In this document: positions 5,225 through 33,472 of the stretch, piece by piece
How positions within the stretch are numbered: position 1 is the first letter of the stretch
Layout of the letters: each line of letters opens with the position of its first letter
Source of the DNA: Sphaerotilus montanus
Lineage (GTDB): Bacteria; Pseudomonadota; Gammaproteobacteria; Burkholderiales; Burkholderiaceae_C
Direction of reading: 5' to 3'
NCBI RefSeq assembly: GCF_013410775.1
Contig: NZ_JACCFH010000001.1
Location: 434,001-498,000 of the forward strand
Length of the DNA stretch: 64,000 nt
Translations under genes and position numbers: made by a program
The notes under the pieces: model-generated
Seen by the model: only the letters and a program-made list of their open reading frames with translations
Databases searched by the model: none
What the model was told of the DNA's origin: nothing

Positions 5225-5522
5225 GGGGAAAAGGCTCTCGGAGACGCGGGCCGCGGGAGGCAGTGCGGCCACGAAGCTGCGAGCGCTTGACCTGGGACCC
5301 GGTCAGCAGACCGGGCCGCAGAATTTGGGCCCGGTGACCGATTCTACGCGGCGTCCAGGCGGTGAAACCCCGGAGTTCATCGGGCGGATTCCCGTGAAAT
5401 TTGCACGCACGGCAGGTCGGACGTCATTCATTCGACTATGGACTTCCGGCACACGGCGCATTCAACTCGTTTCACTTCCGGCACGCCCTGCCGGAGTCCG
5501 TTCCACCTGCTGACCTGCTGCC
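5225..5522. other. Intergenic region between guaC and metacaspase genes
   Basis: A divergent spacer of about 300 bases. On the guaC side there is a perfect 7-bp hairpin with a 4-base loop (CCCGGTC-AGCA-GACCGGG, 5298-5315), probably in the guaC leader. On the metacaspase side there is an 11-bp direct repeat and an inverted repeat, annotated separately. No ORF or known riboswitch was recognised here. Confidence 0.5.
5442..5494 (+). promoter_or_regulatory. Direct repeat and inverted repeat upstream of metacaspase operon
   Basis: ACTTCCGGCAC occurs twice (5442-5452 and 5474-5484), with repeat starts 32 bp apart, about three helical turns. The second copy runs into a perfect inverted repeat CCGGCA-CGCCC-TGCCGG (5478-5494). 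The position 30-80 bases before the metacaspase start suits a regulator-binding site. The regulator is unknown, and a chance repeat in GC-rich DNA cannot be excluded. Confidence 0.35.
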
Positions 5523-6497
<975 letters not shown>

Positions 6498-6519
6498 CCT
6501 GCACGCGCCGGGGGCCGCC

Positions 6520-9500
6520 ATGGAGTTCCGCGCACAACCCGGGACGCCCGCCCTGCCGGCGCTGCTGCGTGCACCGCAGCAGCCAGGTGCGGCCCACCCT
6601 GCCGGCGTTGCTGCGGTCGAGGACGACCGCTGGATGCCCCCCGGCTACCTGCGCGCGCACCTGAGCCTGGCGGTCGCCTGCCCGTCCGACGCGCCGCTGC
6701 ACACCCTCGATCCGGACACCGTGCCGGCGGACGCCCCGGACGGACGCACCCTGCTGGCGCTCGTCCTGGCCGACGGCAGCACCTGGCTCACCACCGCGGC
6801 GCGGCTCGGCGCGTGCCTGAACGCGCACCACCCGACCCTCGCCGATGCGAACGGCGTGTGGCGACTGGACCGGCTCACCCTGCCGAACATCCCCCCCGCC
6901 GGGCCACGCCCGTCCGACGCACCGCCGAGCCCGGTGATCGCGCAGGTGCACGTGGCCATCGCCGGCGGATTGCCGCCAGAGCTCGACCGTCTGGTCGACG
7001 CCATCGGCCACGGGGCGCAGGCCTTGGTGCGCGCCATCGAGGCACCGCTGGCACCGGGTCTCTACCGCTGGGACGGACGGGCGCTCGGTCGGCGTGCCAG
7101 CGGCCTGAGCACCGAGCAGCCGATGCTCGTGTTCATCCACGACCTGGGCTCGGACACCGCGGGCAGCTTCGCCGAACTGGCCAGCCGCGACCGCGTGCTC
7201 TGGGCCGGGCTGGAGCGCCGCTACAGCGGCGGCATCTGGGCGCTGGAGCACCGCACGCTGTCCGACAGCCCGCTGCGCAATGCGATCGACCTGCTCGACG
7301 CCCTGCCCGTGGGCGCCCGGGTCAGCCTCGTGACCCATGGGCGCGGCGGACTGGTGGGCGACCTGCTGTGCCTGCGCGACATCGAGGCGGTGGTCGCGCA
7401 GTGTCTGCCCGAGGACGAACCGGCCACCGCCGCACAGCGGGCGCTGATGCACACGCTGGCCAGCCGCCTCGGCGCGCGCCAGCCGGTGGTGCAACGCTAT
7501 GTCCGCATCGCCAGCCCCGCGGCCGGCTCGCTCTGGCTGGACGAGCACCCGGACCTGTTCCTGTCCCTGCTGCTGGGCCAGGTCGGTCAGGTGCCGCAGA
7601 TGGCGGGGCGGCCGGTGCACACCGCGCTGCGGCGGGCGGTGATCGAGCTGGTCACGCGGCAGATCGATCTCCGCGAAGTGCCGGGCCTCGAAGCGCTGCT
7701 GCCGGCTGCGCCGCTGGCGCGGCTGCTGCTGCGCGCCCGGGTGCAGACCGGCATCGACATGGCCGTGATCGCCGGCGACACCGGAGGCGGCTCGCTGCTG
7801 CACCGGCTGGGCGCCTCGCTGAGCGACTGCCTGCGCTTCGACCAGAGCGAACACGACCTGCTGATCGGCACCGACGCGATGCTCGGCGGGGTGGCTGCGG
7901 CGGCGGATGCACAGGTGCTGCTCGACCGCGGCCGGCAGGTCGGGCACTGGCGCTACTTCACCAACGACAGCACGCGGCGCGCCACCTGCAACTGGCTCCT
8001 CGCAGCACAGCCCCGCGCCGAACCCGGCTGGACCCCGCTGACCGGCACCCCCCTGCCCGAGCCCCCTGCGACCGGCAGCCGCAGCGCGGCGGCGCCCCGC
8101 GCACCTGATCGCCGCGAACAGCCGGTCGTGCTGCTGCTGCCCGGGCTGATGGGCTCGCACCTGCGCGGCCCGGACGGGCAGCGGACCTGGTTCGATCCGC
8201 AGACGCTGCCGCTGGGCGGACTGCCGTCCATCACCTGGTCCCGGCAGCAGGTCGAGGCCGAGTCGCTGTTCGACGCGGTCCATGCCGATCTGGCCGCGCA
8301 CCTGGCCGCCACGCACCGCGTCGAGACCTTCCCCTACGACTGGCGCCAGCCCCTCGACGTGCTCGCCGACCGGCTCGGCGAGCGCCTGACCGCCCTGCTG
8401 CGCGAGACCGACCGGCCGCTGCGGCTGCTGGCCCACGGGCTGGGCGGGCTGGTGGTGCGGGCCTGCATCCACCGGCGCCGTGCCGTGGTGGACGAACTGA
8501 TGCAGCGCAACGGCGCCCGCCTCGTCCTGCTCGGCACGCCGCACCACGGCACCCACGCCGCCGTCGAGGCCCTGCTGGGCAAGTCGGCGGCGCTGCGCGG
8601 GCTGGTCTGGCGCGACACCGCGCAGCCGATGGACAGCGTGCTCGGCCTGCTGGCCGAGTTCCGCGGACTGCTGCAGCTGCTGCCCCGGCGCGGCTTCGAC
8701 GAAGAGGACGCGGCCCATGCCGGCAACGCGCACGAACACCCGGATTTCCAGCGTGCCGACACCTGGGCCGCGCTGCGTCGGGCCAACCGGGACCGCTGGT
8801 TCGGTGACGGCCGGGGCGCCCTGCCGTCCCAGCGGGCGCTCGATGAAGGCAGCTGGCTCTGGCACCAGACCACCGAGTCGGGCGGCACCCTGCCGCCGGC
8901 CTACACCGACCGCACGGTCGCCGTCCACGGCATCGCCCGGCTCACACCCTGCGGCCTGCGCATCGAGAACGGGCGGCTGCAGATGGTCGGCACCACGCGC
9001 GGCGACGGCACGGTGACCTGGGCCTCGGGCCACCTCGACGGCATCGGCCGCCACTACTACCTCGCCGCCGAGCACGGGGAACTCACGACCTGCCGCGACG
9101 GTTTCCCCGCGCTGACCGAGCTGCTGGAGCGCGGCACCACCCGGCTGCTGCCCGGCACGCCGCCCGTGGCACGGGACGCGACCCCGGACGTCTCGACCCG
9201 CTACGACGCCGGCCCGCCCGAAGCGCTCGACACCGCACTGCTGATGCGCGGCCTGTCCGGCGGCACCCGCCGGCCGCGCCGCCCTGCCGTGCAGGCGCCG
9301 CGTTTGCCCACCCGGTCGATGACGGTGCAGGTGCGTGCCGGCGACCTGCGCTTCGTCAGCACGCCCCTGATGGTCGGCCACTACGAACACGACCCCATTG
9401 CCGGGCCGCAGCTGGTGGTGGACCGCGAACTGCTGGACGGCGCGCTCAGCGAGCGCTACCGCCTCGGGCTCTACGCCGGCCCGCGCGGCAGTGCCACCGT

Positions 9501-12327
9501 CGTCCTCTCGCCGCCCAACGACACCGAGCGCCGCCGCGGCAGCCTGCGCGGCGCCATCGTGGTCGGCCTCGGGCGCTACGACGGCGCGCTCGGTGCCCGC
9601 GAGCTGACAGAGTCGGTGCGCACCGGCGCGCTGCGCTACCTGATGCAGGCGCAGGACGTGCTCGGCAGCGCCGAGCGGGCGCTGTCGCTGAGCACGCTGC
9701 TGATCGGCTACAACTCCTCGCTCAACCTGACCGTGGCCGCGTCGGTGGAAGCCCTGGTGCGCGGCGTGCTGGAGGCCAACCAGCGCTTCGCCGAAACCGC
9801 CCGGGCGCGGCTGCACATCGAGCGGCTGGAGATCGTCGAGCTGTACATCGACACCGCCATCAGCGCCGTGCACGCGCTGCGGGACCTGTCCGCCACCCTC
9901 GCCCGCCAGGCCCGCCTGGCCGACCTCGCGCTGCACTGCCAGACCCGCCTCGTCGAAGGCGACGGCCTGCGCCCGCGGCTGGCCGACACGCGCAGTGCCA
10001 GCTACTGGCCGCGCCTGATCGTCACCGACGCCCGGGACGACGACCCCTGCACCCGCAGCACCCCGGTCGCTCCACGGACCGATGCCGACCCACCAGCCCG
10101 GGCCGAGCCGGGCCGCCCGCGCATGGCCGACTGCCTGAAGTTCCTCTACGTCGGCCAGCGCGCCCGGGCCGAATCGGTCGTGCAGCAGCGCCAGCCAGGG
10201 CTGATCGAGGCCATCGTCCAGCAGCACAACGGCAGCCCGGTCTGGAACGAGCACATCGGCCGGATGCTGTTCCACCTGATGGTGCCGAACGACTTCAAGG
10301 ACACCGCCCGCCAGCTGGAGCGCATCGTGCTGGTGGTGGACGACACGACCGCCAACGTGCCCTGGGAGCTGCTCTACGCCCCCGACCCGGACGACGAGAA
10401 GACCTGCGTGCCGCTGTCGCTGCGCACCCCCGTCGTGCGCCAGCTCGACACCACCCAGTACCGGTCACGGGTGCGCCAGAGCCCGGGCCGCTCGGTGCTG
10501 ATGATCGGCAACCCGAGCGTGCGCGGCTTTTCCACCGGCTTCCGCGGCCGCGACGGCAGCGCGCTGGCAGATCCGATCGACCTGCCCGGCGCCGAAGCCG
10601 AGGCCCGCGCGCTCACCCAGCTGATGGAAGGGCTGGGCCACACGGTCGTGCCGCTGATCGGTCCCGAAGCGGCCACCGCCACGCAGGTCCTCGGCTCGCT
10701 GCTCGGACAGCCCTTCCGCTTCGTCCACATCAGCGCCCACGGTGTCCACCAGCTGCAGCACCGGGACGGCGCCCTGCGCTCGGGGGTCGTGCTGTCGGAC
10801 GGGCTGCTGATCACGGCAGCCGAGATCGAGGCCATGGAAGCCGTGCCGGAGCTGGTGTTCCTGAACTGCTGCCACCTCGGCGTGGTGGTGGGCGGCACAC
10901 CGCAGGGCAACCGGCTGGCGGCCAGCCTGGCGCAGCACCTGATCGGCATCGGCGTGCGCTGCGTCGTGGTGGCCGGCTGGGCGGTGGACGACGCGCTGGC
11001 GGCGCAGTTCGGGCAGGTGTTCTACGAGGCCCTGCTGCGCGACAACCAGCCCTTCGGCGAAGCGGTCTTCCGCGCCCGCAAGGCCCTCTGGGACACGGCG
11101 CCGGACAACGTGACCTGGGGCGCCTTCCAGGCCTACGGCGATCCGGCCTGGCAGGCCGAGGCCGGCGGCAGCGAGCGCGGCAACGCCCCGGCGACCGAGA
11201 CCCCGCCGGCCAGCGTCGAGGAGCTGCTGGACGAGCTGTCGCGCCACAGCGCGCAGGCCTCGCGGCGCATCTGCCTGCTCGACCCCGGCGTGCTGGCGGC
11301 GCAGCGCACGCAGCTGGCCACCTACATCGCGCAGCGGGTTCCCCCGGAATGGCAGGACGACCCGGTGATCCTGTCGGCACTCGGCACGACCTGGGCCGAA
11401 CTCGACGCCCCGGAGCAGGCCTGCCTGGCCTACCGGGCCGCGCTGCAGCGCGAGGATCTGCGCGGCCGGGTGCCGGTGCGCGCCATCGAGCAGCTCGCGC
11501 TGATGGAGGCCCGCTGGGGCGAGCGCTCCGGCAACCCCGGTCTGGTCCGGCAGGCCTTGCGGCGCCTGAACGGCGTGCGCCGGGTCATCGGCCTGCACGA
11601 CCGGACCCGCATGCCCGACAGCCCGGACCACTGCGCCATGGTCGGTGGCAGCCAGGTGCATCTGGCAAGCCTGCATGCGGCCCATGTGCTCCGGCACGCC
11701 GACAACCCGGCGCTGATCCGCAAGGACGGGCTGTCCATGCTCAATGCGCTGCAGGCAGCCATCAACGCCTACACGCAGGCAGAGGGCGGACAGGGCACCC
11801 GCCCCTTCTCGCCCTTCCACGCCATCAACCGGCTGTCGCTCGACGCCATCACGCCGTGGGAGAACGAAGAGGAGCGCATGGCCGCCCGGCGTCTGGCGAC
11901 CGAGGCCGGCGAGGTCGCCGAGCGGCAGTTCGGAACCCGCGACAACTTCTGGAACGCGGTGATGGTGCCGGAGGCGCGGCTGGCCGAGGTGCTGCTGGAT
12001 GGCGAACTCGGCAGGCCCGACACCCCCGTGCGGGACGATCTGCGGCGCGCCTACCAGGAGGCGCTGTCGAACCTGACCGTCAAGCCACGGCAGATCGACG
12101 CGGTGATGGCACGCCTGCGCACGCTGTCCTGCCTGTTCGATGCCATGGTGCTTTTCGACGCTGGCGGCAGCGCGGACGCACAGGTCCTGCGCCACTGGTG
12201 GACGGCCGAGCACCTGCTGACGCTGTGCGAGGGGCTGCTCCCCGGCAGCCAGCCGCGCCGCGACCGCCCCCCGCGACCACCACGCCCGCTCAGGCCGCCA
12301 CCCGTTCCCGCTCCGCCGGCGCATTGA
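6520..12327 (+). CDS. Giant CHAT protease with two degenerate alpha/beta-hydrolase domains
   Basis: A 1935-residue protein. Visible order: an alpha/beta-hydrolase-like region (about 200-330, LVFIHDLGSDTAG and the elbow THGRGG near 270); a second, LCAT/PGAP1-like hydrolase (about 535-770, LLLPGLMGSHL, the elbow AHGLGG at 638-643, LLGTPHHGTH); a region with GAIVVGLG (about 935-1100); a CHAT caspase-like protease domain (about 1245-1545) with H1407 in HISAHG and C1451 in FLNCCHLG; and a helical, TPR-like C-terminus (about 1560-1935). In both hydrolase elbows the usual nucleophile serine of GxSxG is glycine, so lipase or esterase activity is doubtful while the CHAT dyad is intact. No signal peptide or membrane segment was seen. 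The gene follows the metacaspase by 22 bases, and its 3' end overlaps the convergent helix-hairpin-helix gene by 38 bases. The biological role is unknown; a two-protease response system is an inference. Confidence 0.88.
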   Translation: MEFRAQPGTPALPALLRAPQQPGAAHPAGVAAVEDDRWMPPGYLRAHLSLAVACPSDAPLHTLDPDTVPADAPDGRTLLALVLADGSTWLTTAARLGACLNAHHPTLADANGVWRLDRLTLPNIPPAGPRPSDAPPSPVIAQVHVAIAGGLPPELDRLVDAIGHGAQALVRAIEAPLAPGLYRWDGRALGRRASGLSTEQPMLVFIHDLGSDTAGSFAELASRDRVLWAGLERRYSGGIWALEHRTLSDSPLRNAIDLLDALPVGARVSLVTHGRGGLVGDLLCLRDIEAVVAQCLPEDEPATAAQRALMHTLASRLGARQPVVQRYVRIASPAAGSLWLDEHPDLFLSLLLGQVGQVPQMAGRPVHTALRRAVIELVTRQIDLREVPGLEALLPAAPLARLLLRARVQTGIDMAVIAGDTGGGSLLHRLGASLSDCLRFDQSEHDLLIGTDAMLGGVAAAADAQVLLDRGRQVGHWRYFTNDSTRRATCNWLLAAQPRAEPGWTPLTGTPLPEPPATGSRSAAAPRAPDRREQPVVLLLPGLMGSHLRGPDGQRTWFDPQTLPLGGLPSITWSRQQVEAESLFDAVHADLAAHLAATHRVETFPYDWRQPLDVLADRLGERLTALLRETDRPLRLLAHGLGGLVVRACIHRRRAVVDELMQRNGARLVLLGTPHHGTHAAVEALLGKSAALRGLVWRDTAQPMDSVLGLLAEFRGLLQLLPRRGFDEEDAAHAGNAHEHPDFQRADTWAALRRANRDRWFGDGRGALPSQRALDEGSWLWHQTTESGGTLPPAYTDRTVAVHGIARLTPCGLRIENGRLQMVGTTRGDGTVTWASGHLDGIGRHYYLAAEHGELTTCRDGFPALTELLERGTTRLLPGTPPVARDATPDVSTRYDAGPPEALDTALLMRGLSGGTRRPRRPAVQAPRLPTRSMTVQVRAGDLRFVSTPLMVGHYEHDPIAGPQLVVDRELLDGALSERYRLGLYAGPRGSATVVLSPPNDTERRRGSLRGAIVVGLGRYDGALGARELTESVRTGALRYLMQAQDVLGSAERALSLSTLLIGYNSSLNLTVAASVEALVRGVLEANQRFAETARARLHIERLEIVELYIDTAISAVHALRDLSATLARQARLADLALHCQTRLVEGDGLRPRLADTRSASYWPRLIVTDARDDDPCTRSTPVAPRTDADPPARAEPGRPRMADCLKFLYVGQRARAESVVQQRQPGLIEAIVQQHNGSPVWNEHIGRMLFHLMVPNDFKDTARQLERIVLVVDDTTANVPWELLYAPDPDDEKTCVPLSLRTPVVRQLDTTQYRSRVRQSPGRSVLMIGNPSVRGFSTGFRGRDGSALADPIDLPGAEAEARALTQLMEGLGHTVVPLIGPEAATATQVLGSLLGQPFRFVHISAHGVHQLQHRDGALRSGVVLSDGLLITAAEIEAMEAVPELVFLNCCHLGVVVGGTPQGNRLAASLAQHLIGIGVRCVVVAGWAVDDALAAQFGQVFYEALLRDNQPFGEAVFRARKALWDTAPDNVTWGAFQAYGDPAWQAEAGGSERGNAPATETPPASVEELLDELSRHSAQASRRICLLDPGVLAAQRTQLATYIAQRVPPEWQDDPVILSALGTTWAELDAPEQACLAYRAALQREDLRGRVPVRAIEQLALMEARWGERSGNPGLVRQALRRLNGVRRVIGLHDRTRMPDSPDHCAMVGGSQVHLASLHAAHVLRHADNPALIRKDGLSMLNALQAAINAYTQAEGGQGTRPFSPFHAINRLSLDAITPWENEEERMAARRLATEAGEVAERQFGTRDNFWNAVMVPEARLAEVLLDGELGRPDTPVRDDLRRAYQEALSNLTVKPRQIDAVMARLRTLSCLFDAMVLFDAGGSADAQVLRHWWTAEHLLTLCEGLLPGSQPRRDRPPRPPRPLRPPPVPAPPAH

Positions 12328-21030: not shown

Positions 21031-23649
21031 ATGCGTGACGCCACACTCCGTGCCACCGCAGCGACCCGGTCCCCACCCATGCCATTGCCCCTGACCAGCC
21101 CCTCCGGCCCCGCCGCGCCGGGCCATGTCCGCATCGTCGGTCTGGGGGCCTCCGCGGGTGGGCTGGAGGTGCTGGGGCAGTTCCTGAGCCACGTGCCGGC
21201 AGCCAGCGGGCTGGCCTATGTCATCGTGCAGCACCTGGACCCGACCCACAAGGCGATGCTGGCCGAGTTGCTGCAGCGGGGCTGCAACCTGCCGGTGCGG
21301 GTGGCCGCCGAGGGGATGGCGGTGGAGCCGGACGTGGTCTACGTGATCCCGCCGAACGCGGAACTCACCGTCGCCAGCGACCGGCTGCACCTGGGCACCC
21401 CCGCCCAGCCGCGCGGCCTGCGTCTGCCGATCGACGTGCTGTTCAGCTCGCTGGCCCGCGACCAGGGCGAGCGGGCGATCGGCGTGGTGCTCTCGGGCAT
21501 GGGCTCGGACGGCACCCTCGGCCTGCAGGCGATCCGTTCCCGCGGCGGCCTGACGCTGACCCAGCCGCCCGAGTCGGCGCCGTTCGATTCCATGCCCCGT
21601 GCCGCCATCGCCGCCGGCGCAGTCGACATCGTGGCGCTGCCGGCCGAGCTGCCCGCACGCATCCTGCGCATCACGGCCAGCCAGCTCCCCGCGCCACCGC
21701 CCGCCGCCGCCCTCTCCGCGGACGACGCGCACCACGACCCCCATCCGCTGACCACCATCCTCGCGATGCTGCGCGAACGCAGCAAGCACGACCTGTCCCT
21801 CTACAAGCCCAGCACCCTGAAGCGCCGCATCGATCGGCGCGTGGCGGTGCACGGGCTGGAATCGGTGGCGGAGTACGAACAGTTCCTGCAACGCAATCCG
21901 CAGGAACTGGATCTGCTGTTCAAGGAGATGCTGATCGGCGTCACCAGCTTCTTCCGTGATCCGCCCGTCTGGCAGGCGCTGCAGGACACCGTGCTACCCG
22001 CCTTGCTCGCCCGCACCGCACCCGGCGCGCAGCTGCGCGCCTGGGTGGTCGGCTGCTCGACCGGAGAAGAGGCGTATTCGCTGGCCATCGCCTTCCGCGA
22101 GGCCATGGACACGCTGCCCGACCCCAAGGCGTTCACGCTGCAGATCTTCGCCACCGACCTCAGCAAGGACGCCATCGCGTTCGCCCGCAAGGGGCACTAC
22201 CCCGCGCGGATCGCCAACGACATCGCGCCCGAGCGGCTGGCCCGCTTCTTCGGCGCGGAGGGCGATGGCTACACCGTCGACAAGTCGCTGCGCGCGGTCG
22301 TGCTGTTCGCGCAGCACGACGTGATCCTGGACCCGCCCTTCACGCGGCTCGACCTGCTGTCCTGCCGCAACGTGCTGATCTACTTCAACGCAGCACTGCA
22401 GCGGCGGCTGGTGCCGCTGTTTCATTACAGCCTGCGCGCGCAGGGGGTGCTGCTGCTGGGCGGCTCGGAAACCGTCGGCCGCTCGCTGGCACTGTTCACC
22501 CCGCTCGACCCCGGTGCGCGCCTCTACCAGCGCAGCGGCCAGCCCCTCCAGCTGGACACGCTGTACTTCCCGGTGCACCGCCACTTCCCGTCGCGCAGCC
22601 TTGCGCAGGAGCCGCATGTGTCCCCTTCCTCACCGCCCAACCCCGCCAACCTGCAGGCCATGGCCGAACAGATGCTGCTGCAGCAGTTCTCGCCCCCGGC
22701 GGTGCTGGTCAACGACAGCGGCGACATCGTCTACATCAGCGGGCGCACCGGCCAGTACCTCGAACCCGCCGCCGGCAAGGCGAACTGGAACATCCACGTC
22801 ATGGCCCGCCCCGGCCTGCGCACGCAGATCGCCGCTGCGCTGCGCCAGACGCTGCAGGACAAGCGGCCCGTCGAACTGCACGGACTGCGGCTGGAACACG
22901 ACCCGCGCCGCACGGTGGATGTGACGGTGCAGTGGATCGACGAGCCGAAGCCGCTGACGGGCATGGTGATGATCGTGTTCCGCGATGCGGCAGAGCTGCC
23001 AGCCAGCGGCGTGCGGCGGCGGCGGGCGGCACGGACCGTCGATCCGTCCGCCAGCGACGAACTCGTGCGGCTGCAGGAAGAGATCCGTGTGCTGCGCCAG
23101 GAGATGCGTTCCTCGGAGGAGGAGCTGCAGGCCGCCAACGAGGAGCTGCAGTCCACCAACGAGGAACTGCAGTCGGCCAACGAGGAACTGACCACCTCCA
23201 AGGAAGAGGCGCAGTCGATGAACGAGGAGCTGCAGACCATCAACAACGAGCTGAACTCCAAGCTCGACGACCTCGCGCTGGCACAGAGCGACATGCAGAA
23301 CCTGCTCAACAGCACCGACATCGCCACGCTCTTCCTCGACAACGCGCTGAACGTGCGCCGCTACACCGAGCAGGTCACGCGCATCATCCACCTCCGCGAA
23401 GGCGACATCGGCCGCCCGCTCAGCGATCTGGCCAGCACCCTCGTCTACCCGGAACTGAACGCCGATGCGCGGGAAACGCTGCGCACGCTGGCGGTGTCCG
23501 AGAAGCAGATCGCCACGACGGACGGTCACTGGTTCAGCGTGCGGATCATGCCGTACCGGACCGTGGCCAACGTGATCCAGGGCGTGGTGATCACCCTCGT
23601 CGACATCACGGTCGCGAAAGAACTCGAATCCCGGCTGCGCTCGGCGTAG
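21031..23649 (+). CDS. CheB-CheR fusion with coiled coil and PAS domain
   Basis: An 872-residue fusion. About 32-215 is a CheB methylesterase with the triad S41 (GLGASAGG), H68 (QHLDP) and D160 (GMGSDGT). About 230-490 is a CheR methyltransferase (SFFRDPP, VVGCSTGEEAYSLAI, LLSCRNVLIYFN). A long heptad coiled coil with repeated ANEELQS-type units lies at about 675-750, and a PAS domain at about 750-865. A receiver domain before CheB is missing, as is usual for this fused class. It probably adjusts methylation of a receptor or partner outside standard chemotaxis. ATG 21079 is an alternative start; neither start has a strong ribosome-binding site. The small PAS gene follows after 10 bases. Confidence 0.92.
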   Translation: MRDATLRATAATRSPPMPLPLTSPSGPAAPGHVRIVGLGASAGGLEVLGQFLSHVPAASGLAYVIVQHLDPTHKAMLAELLQRGCNLPVRVAAEGMAVEPDVVYVIPPNAELTVASDRLHLGTPAQPRGLRLPIDVLFSSLARDQGERAIGVVLSGMGSDGTLGLQAIRSRGGLTLTQPPESAPFDSMPRAAIAAGAVDIVALPAELPARILRITASQLPAPPPAAALSADDAHHDPHPLTTILAMLRERSKHDLSLYKPSTLKRRIDRRVAVHGLESVAEYEQFLQRNPQELDLLFKEMLIGVTSFFRDPPVWQALQDTVLPALLARTAPGAQLRAWVVGCSTGEEAYSLAIAFREAMDTLPDPKAFTLQIFATDLSKDAIAFARKGHYPARIANDIAPERLARFFGAEGDGYTVDKSLRAVVLFAQHDVILDPPFTRLDLLSCRNVLIYFNAALQRRLVPLFHYSLRAQGVLLLGGSETVGRSLALFTPLDPGARLYQRSGQPLQLDTLYFPVHRHFPSRSLAQEPHVSPSSPPNPANLQAMAEQMLLQQFSPPAVLVNDSGDIVYISGRTGQYLEPAAGKANWNIHVMARPGLRTQIAAALRQTLQDKRPVELHGLRLEHDPRRTVDVTVQWIDEPKPLTGMVMIVFRDAAELPASGVRRRRAARTVDPSASDELVRLQEEIRVLRQEMRSSEEELQAANEELQSTNEELQSANEELTTSKEEAQSMNEELQTINNELNSKLDDLALAQSDMQNLLNSTDIATLFLDNALNVRRYTEQVTRIIHLREGDIGRPLSDLASTLVYPELNADARETLRTLAVSEKQIATTDGHWFSVRIMPYRTVANVIQGVVITLVDITVAKELESRLRSA

Positions 23650-32052: not shown

Positions 32053-32230
32053 TTGACATCCTCCCCGCCCTAAAGGACGGGGATTCCGGCGGGCGCGACC
32101 GCTTGCGCGGCCGAGCTTTCGGCGGGTTCCTGCTTCCTCGCGGCTGCGCGTCGTCCCCTCACGGGTCTGGCGCGTCTGACCTCCGCTCCACAGGCTTCGG
32201 GCCTTGCGACCCAGACCGCGTGTCCCGCGG
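32053..32230 (-). ncRNA. Predicted omega RNA (right-end guide RNA of TnpB)
   Basis: In characterised TnpB systems the guide RNA comes from the 3' part of tnpB and the element's right end, with the guide supplied by the flanking DNA. Here that corresponds to the end of tnpB plus the hairpin at 32063-32082. The guide would begin in the flanking truncated gene near 32052, reading GUCAAGGAGAGCCCGACA on the minus strand. The extents are estimated, not observed. Confidence 0.4.
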
Positions 32231-33347
32231 CCAATATGTTCTTCGCGGCGTTCAGGTCCGCGTTCTCGCTGTGCCCGCACGCTTCGCACGCGAAGCGGGC
32301 TTGCGTCGGCCGATTCTCCTTGGCGGTGTGGCCGCAGGCGCTGCACCGCTGGCTCGTGTACGCCGGCTCCACTGGCACCACTGCGCCACCTCGGGCCGCG
32401 GTCTTGTATTCCAGTTGTCGCCGTGCCTCGCCCCACGCCTGATCCAGGATCGAGCGGTTCAGCCCCGCCTTCTGTCGCACCCGCTTTCCTGGCGCGCTGG
32501 CCGTGCCCTGGGCGCTGGCGCTCATCGCCGCCACCTTCAGATCCTCGATCGCGATCACCGGATGCTCGTTCGCCCACCGCGTCGTCAGCTTGTGCAGCCA
32601 GTCATTGCGCTGCGCCGCGATCCGGGCATGCACCCTGCCCAGTCGGTCAATCGACTTGCGCCGGTTCTTCGAGCCTTTCACCTTGCGCGACACCGATCGC
32701 TGAACGCGCTTCAGGTACTTCTGCTGCCGCTTGAGCGCATTCAGCGGTGCCACACACTCGCCGTCTGTCGTCGCGGCGAACAGCTTCACACCGAAGTCGA
32801 TCCCCAGTGTCGGCACCAGCCCCGCTGCCGGCATCACGTCCGGTTGTTCAACTTGGATCGACACGAACCAGCGGCCCCGCTCCTGCGTCAGCGTGTAGTT
32901 CCGAACCGTTCCCTCGACCGGCTGCGACTGACGCATCCGCACCCAGCCGAGTTTCGGTGGCTTCAGCCGCTGGTTGTCCGTGTCGAGCTTGCAGTCCAAA
33001 GCCTTCGGGAAGCGAAGTCCCGCATCTTGCCCACGTCCGCGAAACCGGGGATAGCCGCCTTGGCCTTCGAAGAAGCGCCGGTAACTCGCCTCCAGTCGCT
33101 TCAAGGTTTGCTGCTGCGCCTGCACAGGCGTCTCGGACAGCCACGCCGTGTCCGGGTCGTTGCGCCACGCCGTCAGCCAGCGGCACATCGCCGCGTAGCC
33201 CGAGAACTTCTCGCCCGCCGCCCTCAGCCGCTGCTGCTCGCCGATGGCCCGGTTCCACACCCAGCGGCACGCGCCAGCGAACCGGCGCAAGGCGTGTGCG
33301 GTGCCGGGCTTGGGGCGCAACTGGAAGCGGAAGGCTCGAATGGACAT
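32070..33347 (-). CDS. tnpB: RNA-guided endonuclease TnpB
   Basis: A 425-residue TnpB, the transposon-encoded relative of Cas12. The RuvC-like active site looks complete: D184 (LGIDFG), E268 (IAIEDLK) and D364 (NADLNAAKN). A four-cysteine zinc-finger region lies between the last two (CSACG, then CEACG). The N-terminal helix-turn-helix-like part (SIRAFRFQLRP, RWVWNRAIGEQQ) is present. ATG 33347 is preferred; a TTG six codons upstream is also in frame. The protein probably helps retain the element by guided cleavage of empty donor sites. It is intact despite the absence of tnpA. Confidence 0.92.
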   Translation of the reverse strand: MSIRAFRFQLRPKPGTAHALRRFAGACRWVWNRAIGEQQRLRAAGEKFSGYAAMCRWLTAWRNDPDTAWLSETPVQAQQQTLKRLEASYRRFFEGQGGYPRFRGRGQDAGLRFPKALDCKLDTDNQRLKPPKLGWVRMRQSQPVEGTVRNYTLTQERGRWFVSIQVEQPDVMPAAGLVPTLGIDFGVKLFAATTDGECVAPLNALKRQQKYLKRVQRSVSRKVKGSKNRRKSIDRLGRVHARIAAQRNDWLHKLTTRWANEHPVIAIEDLKVAAMSASAQGTASAPGKRVRQKAGLNRSILDQAWGEARRQLEYKTAARGGAVVPVEPAYTSQRCSACGHTAKENRPTQARFACEACGHSENADLNAAKNILAAGHAVWVARPEACGAEVRRARPVRGRRAAARKQEPAESSAAQAVAPAGIPVL

Positions 33348-33472
33348 GATCGATACTGTATACAAAGCCAGTCAACCATGCCACAGGAAACTCATCCACC
33401 AAGCCAACGGCTCGCTGCGCGAGCCTGCGCTCTACCTCCCCGCCCTGAAGGACGGGGCTTCTCGCGCTTTCT

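What the first reader, a model, noticed from the sequence alone, without database searches (positions are those of the whole stretch)
5442..12327. Metacaspase plus giant CHAT protease: possible two-protease stress or defence module
An intact metacaspase (H115/C166) is followed after 22 bases by a 1935-residue protein with an intact CHAT protease dyad (H1407/C1451) and a TPR-like tail. Seen directly: adjacency, both dyads, and the repeats upstream. Known: caspase-fold and CHAT proteases act in prokaryotic immunity and cell-suicide systems (for example TPR-CHAT with type III-E CRISPR, and gasdermin-associated proteases). Inferred: the two form a proteolytic cascade in which one enzyme activates the other or a hydrolase-like part of the giant protein. 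No gasdermin or CRISPR gene is nearby.
Basis: partly seen in the sequence, partly recalled or inferred. Interest (0 to 1): 0.75.

Follow-up and report, generated by a model that had tools for sequence, protein, structure and literature searches.

The report
Metacaspase–CHAT protease pair, lipases dead
A bacterium carries a caspase-like protease next to a giant protein that joins two lipase-like domains, a second protease and a sensor-like tail; the pair recurs in many other bacteria, sometimes near immune-type genes, but in this species both lipase active sites have lost their catalytic serine while both protease sites look intact.

Summary
In detail: a metacaspase (5523-6497, H115/C166) is followed after 22 nt by a 1935-aa protein with an intact CHAT dyad (H1407/C1451). 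The pairing recurs: a metacaspase lies upstream in 45 of 69 testable relatives, and both genes are present in 23 of 200 family genomes, about 5 expected. The giant is two alpha/beta-hydrolases (lysosomal-PLA2/LCAT-like), a small alpha/beta domain, CHAT and a TPR-S-like tail. TIR genes or domains lie in 16 of 80 relatives' loci, which suggests an immune/suicide-type module. New point: 33 of 33 full-length relatives keep Ser in both hydrolase elbows, the window protein has Gly in both, and all 12 of its departures from conserved columns fall in residues 1-900. At the same locus four congeners keep metacaspase plus a hydrolase-less CHAT protein, and two keep the metacaspase without it. So the protease core is separable from the lipase arms, which look dead here. 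A metacaspase-CHAT cascade and an anti-phage role remain untested. The upstream repeats are probably chance. No CRISPR array or gasdermin gene was found in what was scanned of the window.

The parts
5523..6497 (+). metacaspase (Peptidase_C14), 324 aa; H115 at 5865-5867, C166 at 6018-6020
   Evidence: solved relative 3BIJ (GSU0716) E 4.3e-87
6520..12327 (+). giant protein, 1935 aa: hydrolase-hydrolase-small alpha/beta domain-CHAT-TPR-S-like tail
7102..8034 (+). first alpha/beta-hydrolase domain (residues ~195-505), DUF7379-like; oxyanion motif HGT of relatives is HDL here
7339..7341 (+). codon 274, GGG (Gly) where relatives have the nucleophile Ser
8107..9174 (+). second alpha/beta-hydrolase domain (residues ~530-885), LCAT/lysosomal-PLA2-like
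   Evidence: which domain the Foldseek match covers is not printed
8437..8439 (+). codon 640, GGG (Gly) where relatives have the nucleophile Ser
9217..9309 (+). Arg-rich linker (residues 900-930) between hydrolase half and CHAT half; candidate cleavage segment (inference)
   Evidence: pLDDT 61-63 in the second model
9310..9999 (+). small alpha/beta domain (residues ~931-1160), possibly like the N-terminal domain of M17 aminopeptidases (weak lead, partly recalled)
   Evidence: 3kzw, E 0.006
10294..11142 (+). CHAT peptidase domain (residues 1259-1541); H1407 at 10738-10740, C1451 at 10870-10872
11416..11841 (+). divergent TPR-S-like segment (residues 1633-1774) of the all-helical tail
   Evidence: (E 0.00035, below the gathering score)

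Best explanation
This is a member of a widespread two-gene protease module: a stand-alone metacaspase encoded with a multidomain CHAT peptidase whose TPR-S-like tail probably acts as a ligand or partner sensor. In most relatives the same polypeptide carries two lipase-type hydrolases that would be the destructive output, probably against membrane phospholipids. A threat signal, plausibly a nucleotide made by TIR enzymes that are sometimes encoded beside it, would switch on the CHAT protease through the tail; the metacaspase (Arg/Lys type by its conserved Asp, recalled) and the CHAT protease then act in one pathway, and the hydrolases damage the cell. In the window's lineage the hydrolase output has been switched off (both nucleophiles Ser to Gly) and in sister species deleted, so here the module most likely works as a protease-only signalling or killing switch, with the dead hydrolases kept as scaffold or decaying. 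Shown: pairing, protease dyads, double loss of hydrolase Ser, absence of the hydrolases in congeners, TIR/TPR-S association in a part of the relatives. Inferred: threat signal, direction of cleavage, substrates, lipid target, defence role.
For: Metacaspase upstream in 45 of 69 testable loci of the 80 fetched; 23 of 200 genomes hold both against about 5 expected, odds ratio 51; 19 of 141 genera. Dyads kept. Predicted structures: residues 1-930 (pLDDT 85) hit lysosomal PLA2 first; residues 900-1935 (pLDDT 88) hit Csx29/TPR-CHAT first. TPR-S in 48 of 71 tails. TIR in 16 of 80 loci against about 0.4 expected from family density (rough), including 3 giants with TIR fused at the C terminus; TPR-S gene downstream in 5 Accumulibacter loci and one Cyanobium. 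Hydrolase death: Ser in both elbows in 33 of 33 relatives, Gly in both here; 12 broken conserved columns, all at residues under 900; lowest hydrolase/CHAT identity ratio of 29 rows; first-hydrolase end branch 1.64 against 0.41 for residues 933-1546. Congeners G200, G204, G205, G208: metacaspase plus hydrolase-less CHAT, together sister to the window protein; dN/dS 0.39 for CHAT and 0.30 for metacaspase between G204 and G208.
Against: No direct evidence of cleavage, phage resistance or toxicity. In the window the adjacent genes are ordinary, and in congeners the metacaspase sits at the same guaC-linked place, unlike a mobile defence island. The metacaspase also occurs without a giant next to it (at least ten family genomes; G202 and G203 at this very locus), so it must have a use of its own. 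24 of 69 testable giants have no metacaspase upstream. The window's TPR-S match is below the curated score. Defence-type neighbours are a minority in each set scanned, and PADLOC also hits ordinary window genes.
Confidence: 0.5

Rival explanations
1. Decay: the hydrolase half is simply a relic on its way out, and the metacaspase and CHAT protein are independent enzymes that happen to be encoded together; no cascade.
For: Hydrolase half has diverged most; congeners lack it, and two have no giant at this locus; the metacaspase is often without a giant beside it.
Against: The frame is open over 1935 aa without a stop; both domains still model as folded, although the alignment of active relatives helps; a first hydrolase without Ser also persists in two congeners at another locus; the pair recurs with two very different metacaspase subtypes (66-71% and 31-39% identity to the window's).
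Confidence: 0.25
2. Not immunity but regulated proteolysis in stress or development, for example a Csx29-like switch that cleaves a regulator.
For: Chromosomal locus kept beside guaC in congeners; the closest solved CHAT relative by fold is Csx29, whose substrate Csx30 inhibits a sigma factor (passages of PMC10028731).
Against: TIR and TPR-S neighbours and TIR fusions in a part of the relatives; patchy distribution, 20 of 300 genomes of the order.
Confidence: 0.2
3. The hydrolase half of the window protein keeps activity through another nucleophile.
For: Asp and His of both presumed triads are kept (D420/H476, D829/H852; 33 of 33 relatives and the window).
Against: Gly replaces the elbow Ser in both domains and the first oxyanion motif HGT is HDL.
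Confidence: 0.05

Closest known systems
Type III-E CRISPR TPR-CHAT protease (Csx29/Craspase)
   Same: CHAT peptidase with TPR-type helices; best Foldseek match of residues 900-1935 (8eex, 8d9f, 7y85)
   Different: No CRISPR array and no Cas7-11 match in what was scanned of the window; the TPR part follows CHAT here (it precedes it in Csx29, recalled); two hydrolase domains and a metacaspase partner
VMAP (MoxR-vWA) ternary conflict systems with caspase plus neighbouring alpha/beta-hydrolase
   Same: caspase encoded beside an alpha/beta-hydrolase, stated for VMAP systems in PMC7159879 (passages seen)
   Different: here the hydrolases are fused to CHAT and TPR-S; no MoxR or vWA match in the three window genes next to the pair; 'chat' has 0 occurrences in that paper
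TPR-S/TIR nucleotide-sensing conflict systems (Burroughs and Aravind, recalled; the paper is not held)
   Same: TPR-S tail, TIR and TPR-S neighbours in a part of the relatives
   Different: no TIR or TPR-S gene beside the window pair; the TIR matches of this genome lie outside the window
GSU0716 metacaspase (PDB 3BIJ)
   Same: solved relative of the first gene, E 4.3e-87
   Different: deposited as 'Uncharacterized protein'; the one paper found that names it was seen only as a search listing
Protease-activated proenzyme pairs (nuclease plus trypsin-like protease, PMC12799240; start of abstract seen in a listing)
   Same: idea of a protease switching on a neighbouring effector
   Different: other protease fold, other effector; no activation shown here

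Membership tests
metacaspase (C14) | His-Cys dyad and Pfam C14 domain | tested here: met
   PF00656 3.3e-19; H115/C166, Cys motif in 52 of 52 and His motif in 51 of 52 adjacent caspases
metacaspase (C14) | Asp before the catalytic CHSG (basic P1 preference) and Asp-Asp pair of the Ca2+ site (roles recalled) | tested here: met
   D164, D143 and D144 among the >=95% conserved columns; aligned with yeast metacaspase 4f6o. Activity not testable
CHAT peptidase | PF12770 with His and Cys | tested here: met
TPR-S | match above the curated score (27.6 bits) | tested here: inconclusive
   window 21.5 bits, E 0.00035; 48 of 71 tails match at 0.001
active alpha/beta-hydrolase/lipase | nucleophile Ser in the elbow | tested here: not met
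   Gly274 and Gly640
type III-E Craspase | Cas7-11/gRAMP and CRISPR array nearby | tested here: not met
   no array-like direct repeats of 23 nt or more within 120 nt in the window (the one family found is a 21-nt coding repeat); no gRAMP model among the PADLOC matches of 32 window proteins downstream of the pair
gasdermin-protease system | gasdermin gene beside the protease | tested here: inconclusive
   adjacent genes are guaC, a coiled-coil protein and GGDEF/EAL; no gasdermin name among the 25 families, but I did not check that the library holds one
EACC1-caspase system | NF047832 caspase above 140 bits | tested here: not met
   30.1 bits
VMAP ternary system | MoxR and vWA partners next to the caspase | tested here: not met
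   three window genes next to the pair scanned, none matches; genes further away not scanned with Pfam
two-protease cascade | one enzyme cleaves and activates the other | not testable with these tools
   needs biochemistry

The most novel reading that the evidence does not exclude
A bacterial inflammasome-like pathway: a TPR-S-gated CHAT protease and an Arg/Lys-specific metacaspase act in series, and the executioner is a pair of phospholipase domains in the same polypeptide, separable at a basic linker. In the window's genus the executioner has been disarmed and discarded, so that a death pathway was turned into a protease-only signal, a natural series of active, dead and absent effector over the same two proteases.
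Probability: 0.25. Interest if true: 0.85.

Novelty: new variant of a known kind. Interest (0 to 1): 0.6.

Why it matters
Caspase-fold and CHAT proteases are linked to immunity and cell death in bacteria and eukaryotes. A conserved unit of two such proteases with built-in lipases and a TPR-S tail did not turn up in the open papers searched (ranked listings and passages only, most subscription journals not held). The genus offers a ready comparison of active (relatives), dead (window) and missing (congeners) lipase arms over the same protease pair, which lets one test which part does the killing or signalling.

Tried and rejected
Upstream repeats as a regulatory feature: rejected; absent in 5 of 5 congener regions and seen in 75 of 5000 shuffles; no sigma-70-like promoter was found there either. 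CRISPR array in the window: none (alone, a tandem-repeat scan, would not have shown one). The PADLOC 'Csx1' and 'Cas12f' matches in the control set come, by my reading, from a TnpB-like protein of an IS200/IS605-type element (8 matching places in the genome), so PADLOC hits alone were not used as evidence. Basic-linker idea: R+K fraction in linker 900-931 is 0.187 with (45) and 0.146 without (24) an upstream metacaspase (p 0.03, four linkers tested, uncorrected, relatives not independent; another linker goes the opposite way, p 0.004); kept only as a lead. VIA-align was not available. A single origin of the dead first hydrolase in the window, G202 and G203 is favoured by the hydrolase tree (96/89, but long branches meet); the CHAT tree puts G202/G203 elsewhere and does not reject one clade (p-AU 0.08).

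Genes in fetched loci were called by a simple codon-position rule or as stop-to-stop frames. The neighbour sets hold near copies from related genomes (urate oxidase 6, GDPD 6, molybdopterin 4, Glyco_hydro_46 4, Glycos_trans_3N 4), so neighbour counts are not independent. The TIR expectation uses the density in the window's family, while the 80 loci come from many groups.
Full report
1. What is there. The window lies at 434001-498000 of contig 1 of a 5.07 Mb genome. Two genes on the + strand, 5523-6497 and 6520-12327, are separated by 22 nt. The first is a metacaspase (PF00656 3.3e-19) with a solved relative, 3BIJ/GSU0716 (E 4.3e-87). The second holds the only PF12770 (CHAT) match of the genome at E <= 0.001. 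It has two DUF7379 stretches and CHAT at 1259-1541.

2. Architecture. AlphaFold models were made from alignments of 64 and 61 sequences. Residues 1-930: pLDDT 85, pTM 0.88; best solved matches are lysosomal phospholipase A2 (4x92, E 2.7e-7), then bacterial lipases, other alpha/beta-hydrolases and LCAT. Residues 900-1935: pLDDT 88, pTM 0.83; six matches reach E 0.001, five of them Csx29/TPR-CHAT chains and one a TPR domain; weaker ones include an M17 aminopeptidase (E 0.006) and separase (E 0.018). The tail matches TPR-S (PF20308) in 48 of 71 scanned tails; the window's own match is 21.5 bits, under the curated 27.6. Many of the better TPR-S matches of 200 family genomes lie in the giants themselves, judged by place and frame length.

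3. The pair recurs. In 200 genomes of the family, 32 have the metacaspase (E <= 1e-5) and 31 the CHAT half (E <= 1e-10). 23 have both, against about 5 expected (odds ratio 51, p 2e-16; 19 of 141 genera, p 4e-14; relatedness not removed). Reading together, the metacaspase is directly upstream in 13 of the 31 (window included; in G114 about 1 kb lies between). Of 80 GTDB loci (the best of 580), 69 can be tested and 45 have a metacaspase upstream on the same strand. An earlier, cruder count was 52 of 116 loci, with family and plasmid loci included. The partners fall in two groups, 66-71% and 31-39% identical to the window's. Paired loci include Betaproteobacteria, Pseudomonas, Cyanobium, Nitrospira and a Desulfobacterales bin. 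Against: 24 of 69 giants lack it, and at least ten family genomes have a metacaspase without a giant next to it.

4. Context in relatives. Among immediate same-strand neighbours, TIR_2 is in 7 of 48 downstream and 3 of 46 upstream, and TPR-S in 4 of the 48. With local profiles, TIR genes or domains are in 16 of the 80 loci. From 177 TIR_2 matches in 200 family genomes (sum of the table) about 0.4 loci would be expected; hosts of the 80 differ from that sample, so this is rough. In three giants (L186, L190, L192) TIR is fused at the C terminus. In G162 and G114 metacaspase, giant and TIR follow each other on one strand. Downstream PADLOC matches are mostly TIR types; single upstream neighbours match LmuA, Avs1a, QatA and phospholipase-effector models. 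A control of 32 window proteins downstream of the pair gave 25 PADLOC families (among them TnpB-like hits), none of them TIR. A Rhizobium plasmid has a hydrolase-less CHAT gene between two TIR genes. In the window the adjacent genes are guaC, a coiled-coil protein and a GGDEF/EAL protein; the TIR_2 matches of this genome lie outside the window.

5. The dead hydrolases. Aligned with 33 full-length relatives (29 from the family, 4 from plasmids; two short ones, G021 and the Rhizobium protein, left out), the window protein alone has Gly instead of Ser in both elbows (THGRGG 274, AHGLGG 640); Ser is present at both places in 33 of 33 (codons). Of 139 columns conserved in at least 94% of the others it breaks 12, all at residues under 900, a part that holds 82 of the 139 (p 0.001). 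Other sequences break 0-8, in sum 41 in that part and 45 elsewhere (Fisher p 4e-4). The first oxyanion motif HGT is HDL. Asp and His of both presumed triads stay. Triads were assigned by conservation, not by geometry. In the 80 GTDB loci the second elbow is Ser in 77, Gly in 2 (both Cyanobium: L140, L179) and missing in 1; the first is Ser in 73, Cys in 1 (L140), missing in 5 and misaligned in 1 (the first count is biased by the scan pattern). The ratio of hydrolase to CHAT identity is lowest in the window (0.873) and next lowest in L140 (0.929) among 29 rows, the rest 0.964-1.075.

6. A natural series in the genus. 11 of 13 genus genomes (window's included) have a CHAT match. Six fetched regions show this locus by its landmarks (L226, L227, L228, L231, L232, L233; in L232 the contig lacks the guaC side). 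G202 and G203 have the metacaspase and no giant there. G200, G204, G205 and G208 have the metacaspase plus a CHAT protein that starts at about residue 933 and has no hydrolase; an in-frame GTG (TTG in L231) overlaps the metacaspase stop by 4 nt, and the CHAT motifs are kept. In G058 the metacaspase follows the homologue of the window's 1357-4299 gene, without guaC in the 12 kb fetched, and a TIR gene comes directly after it. The rest of the genus was not examined at this place. The tree of residues 933-1546 makes the window protein sister to the four short ones (SH-aLRT 98; 98/96). dN/dS between G204 and G208 is 0.30 for metacaspase and 0.39 for CHAT. G202 and G203 carry, elsewhere, a giant with only the first hydrolase, also without Ser (THGRGG, TLGRGG). 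So at least two kinds of event, loss of the nucleophiles and loss of the domains, hit the hydrolases while the proteases stayed. Hydrolase-less forms also occur in G021, G207 and on the Rhizobium plasmid. By contrast, G170, G058 and G209 of the genus keep giants with both Ser, at other places.

7. How it may work. Shown: two proteases with kept dyads in one unit, sensor-like tail, lipase-like arms with full triads in relatives and without Ser here. From known families: Csx29 is allosterically switched through its TPR part (passages of PMC10028731); caspase with alpha/beta-hydrolase neighbours is a theme of conflict systems (passages of PMC7159879); TPR-S as nucleotide sensor is recalled. Inference: a threat signal binds the tail, CHAT is switched on, metacaspase and CHAT act in one pathway, lipases execute. 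In the window only the proteolytic output would be left.

8. Verdict. The two-protease module is real and recurrent, a defence or suicide role is plausible from context in a part of the relatives, the cascade is untested, and the lipase output is unlikely here as far as the Ser is needed. New variant of a known kind.

Noticed in passing
5262-5360 (- strand), leader of guaC: The guaC leader holds long blocks identical in the window and 4 congeners (GCGTAGAATCG, GGGCCCAAATTCTGCGGCCCGGT, CAGGTCAAGCGCTCGCAG) and can fold into a hairpin, but without compensatory changes; no Rfam family reaches its gathering score.
   Followed up: partly
32073-33365 (-): A protein that reads as TnpB of an IS200/IS605-type element (my reading); PADLOC models Cas12f/Csx1 match the control set. 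Eight places in the genome match the Csx1 model.
   Followed up: partly
23090-23279: Seven copies of a 21-nt coding repeat inside the 872-aa ORF 21031-23649.
   Followed up: no
L186, L190, L192: Giants with a TIR domain fused at the C terminus: sensor-like tail, protease, hydrolases and TIR in one chain.
   Followed up: no
   Followed up: no
L140, L179 (Cyanobium): Loss of the second hydrolase Ser (Gly) outside the window's genus and, in L140, Cys in the first elbow.
   Followed up: partly
L032, L035 (Paracoccus plasmids): The gene before the giant encodes a protein of 1081-1094 aa instead of a metacaspase; one matches SBP_bac_3 (28.6 bits, cut-off 26.4), the other nothing in Pfam; unknown partner.
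   Followed up: no
G058 (L095) and G133 (L099): Metacaspases without a giant next to them have a TIR gene directly downstream (G058) or about 2 kb downstream (G133).
   Followed up: no
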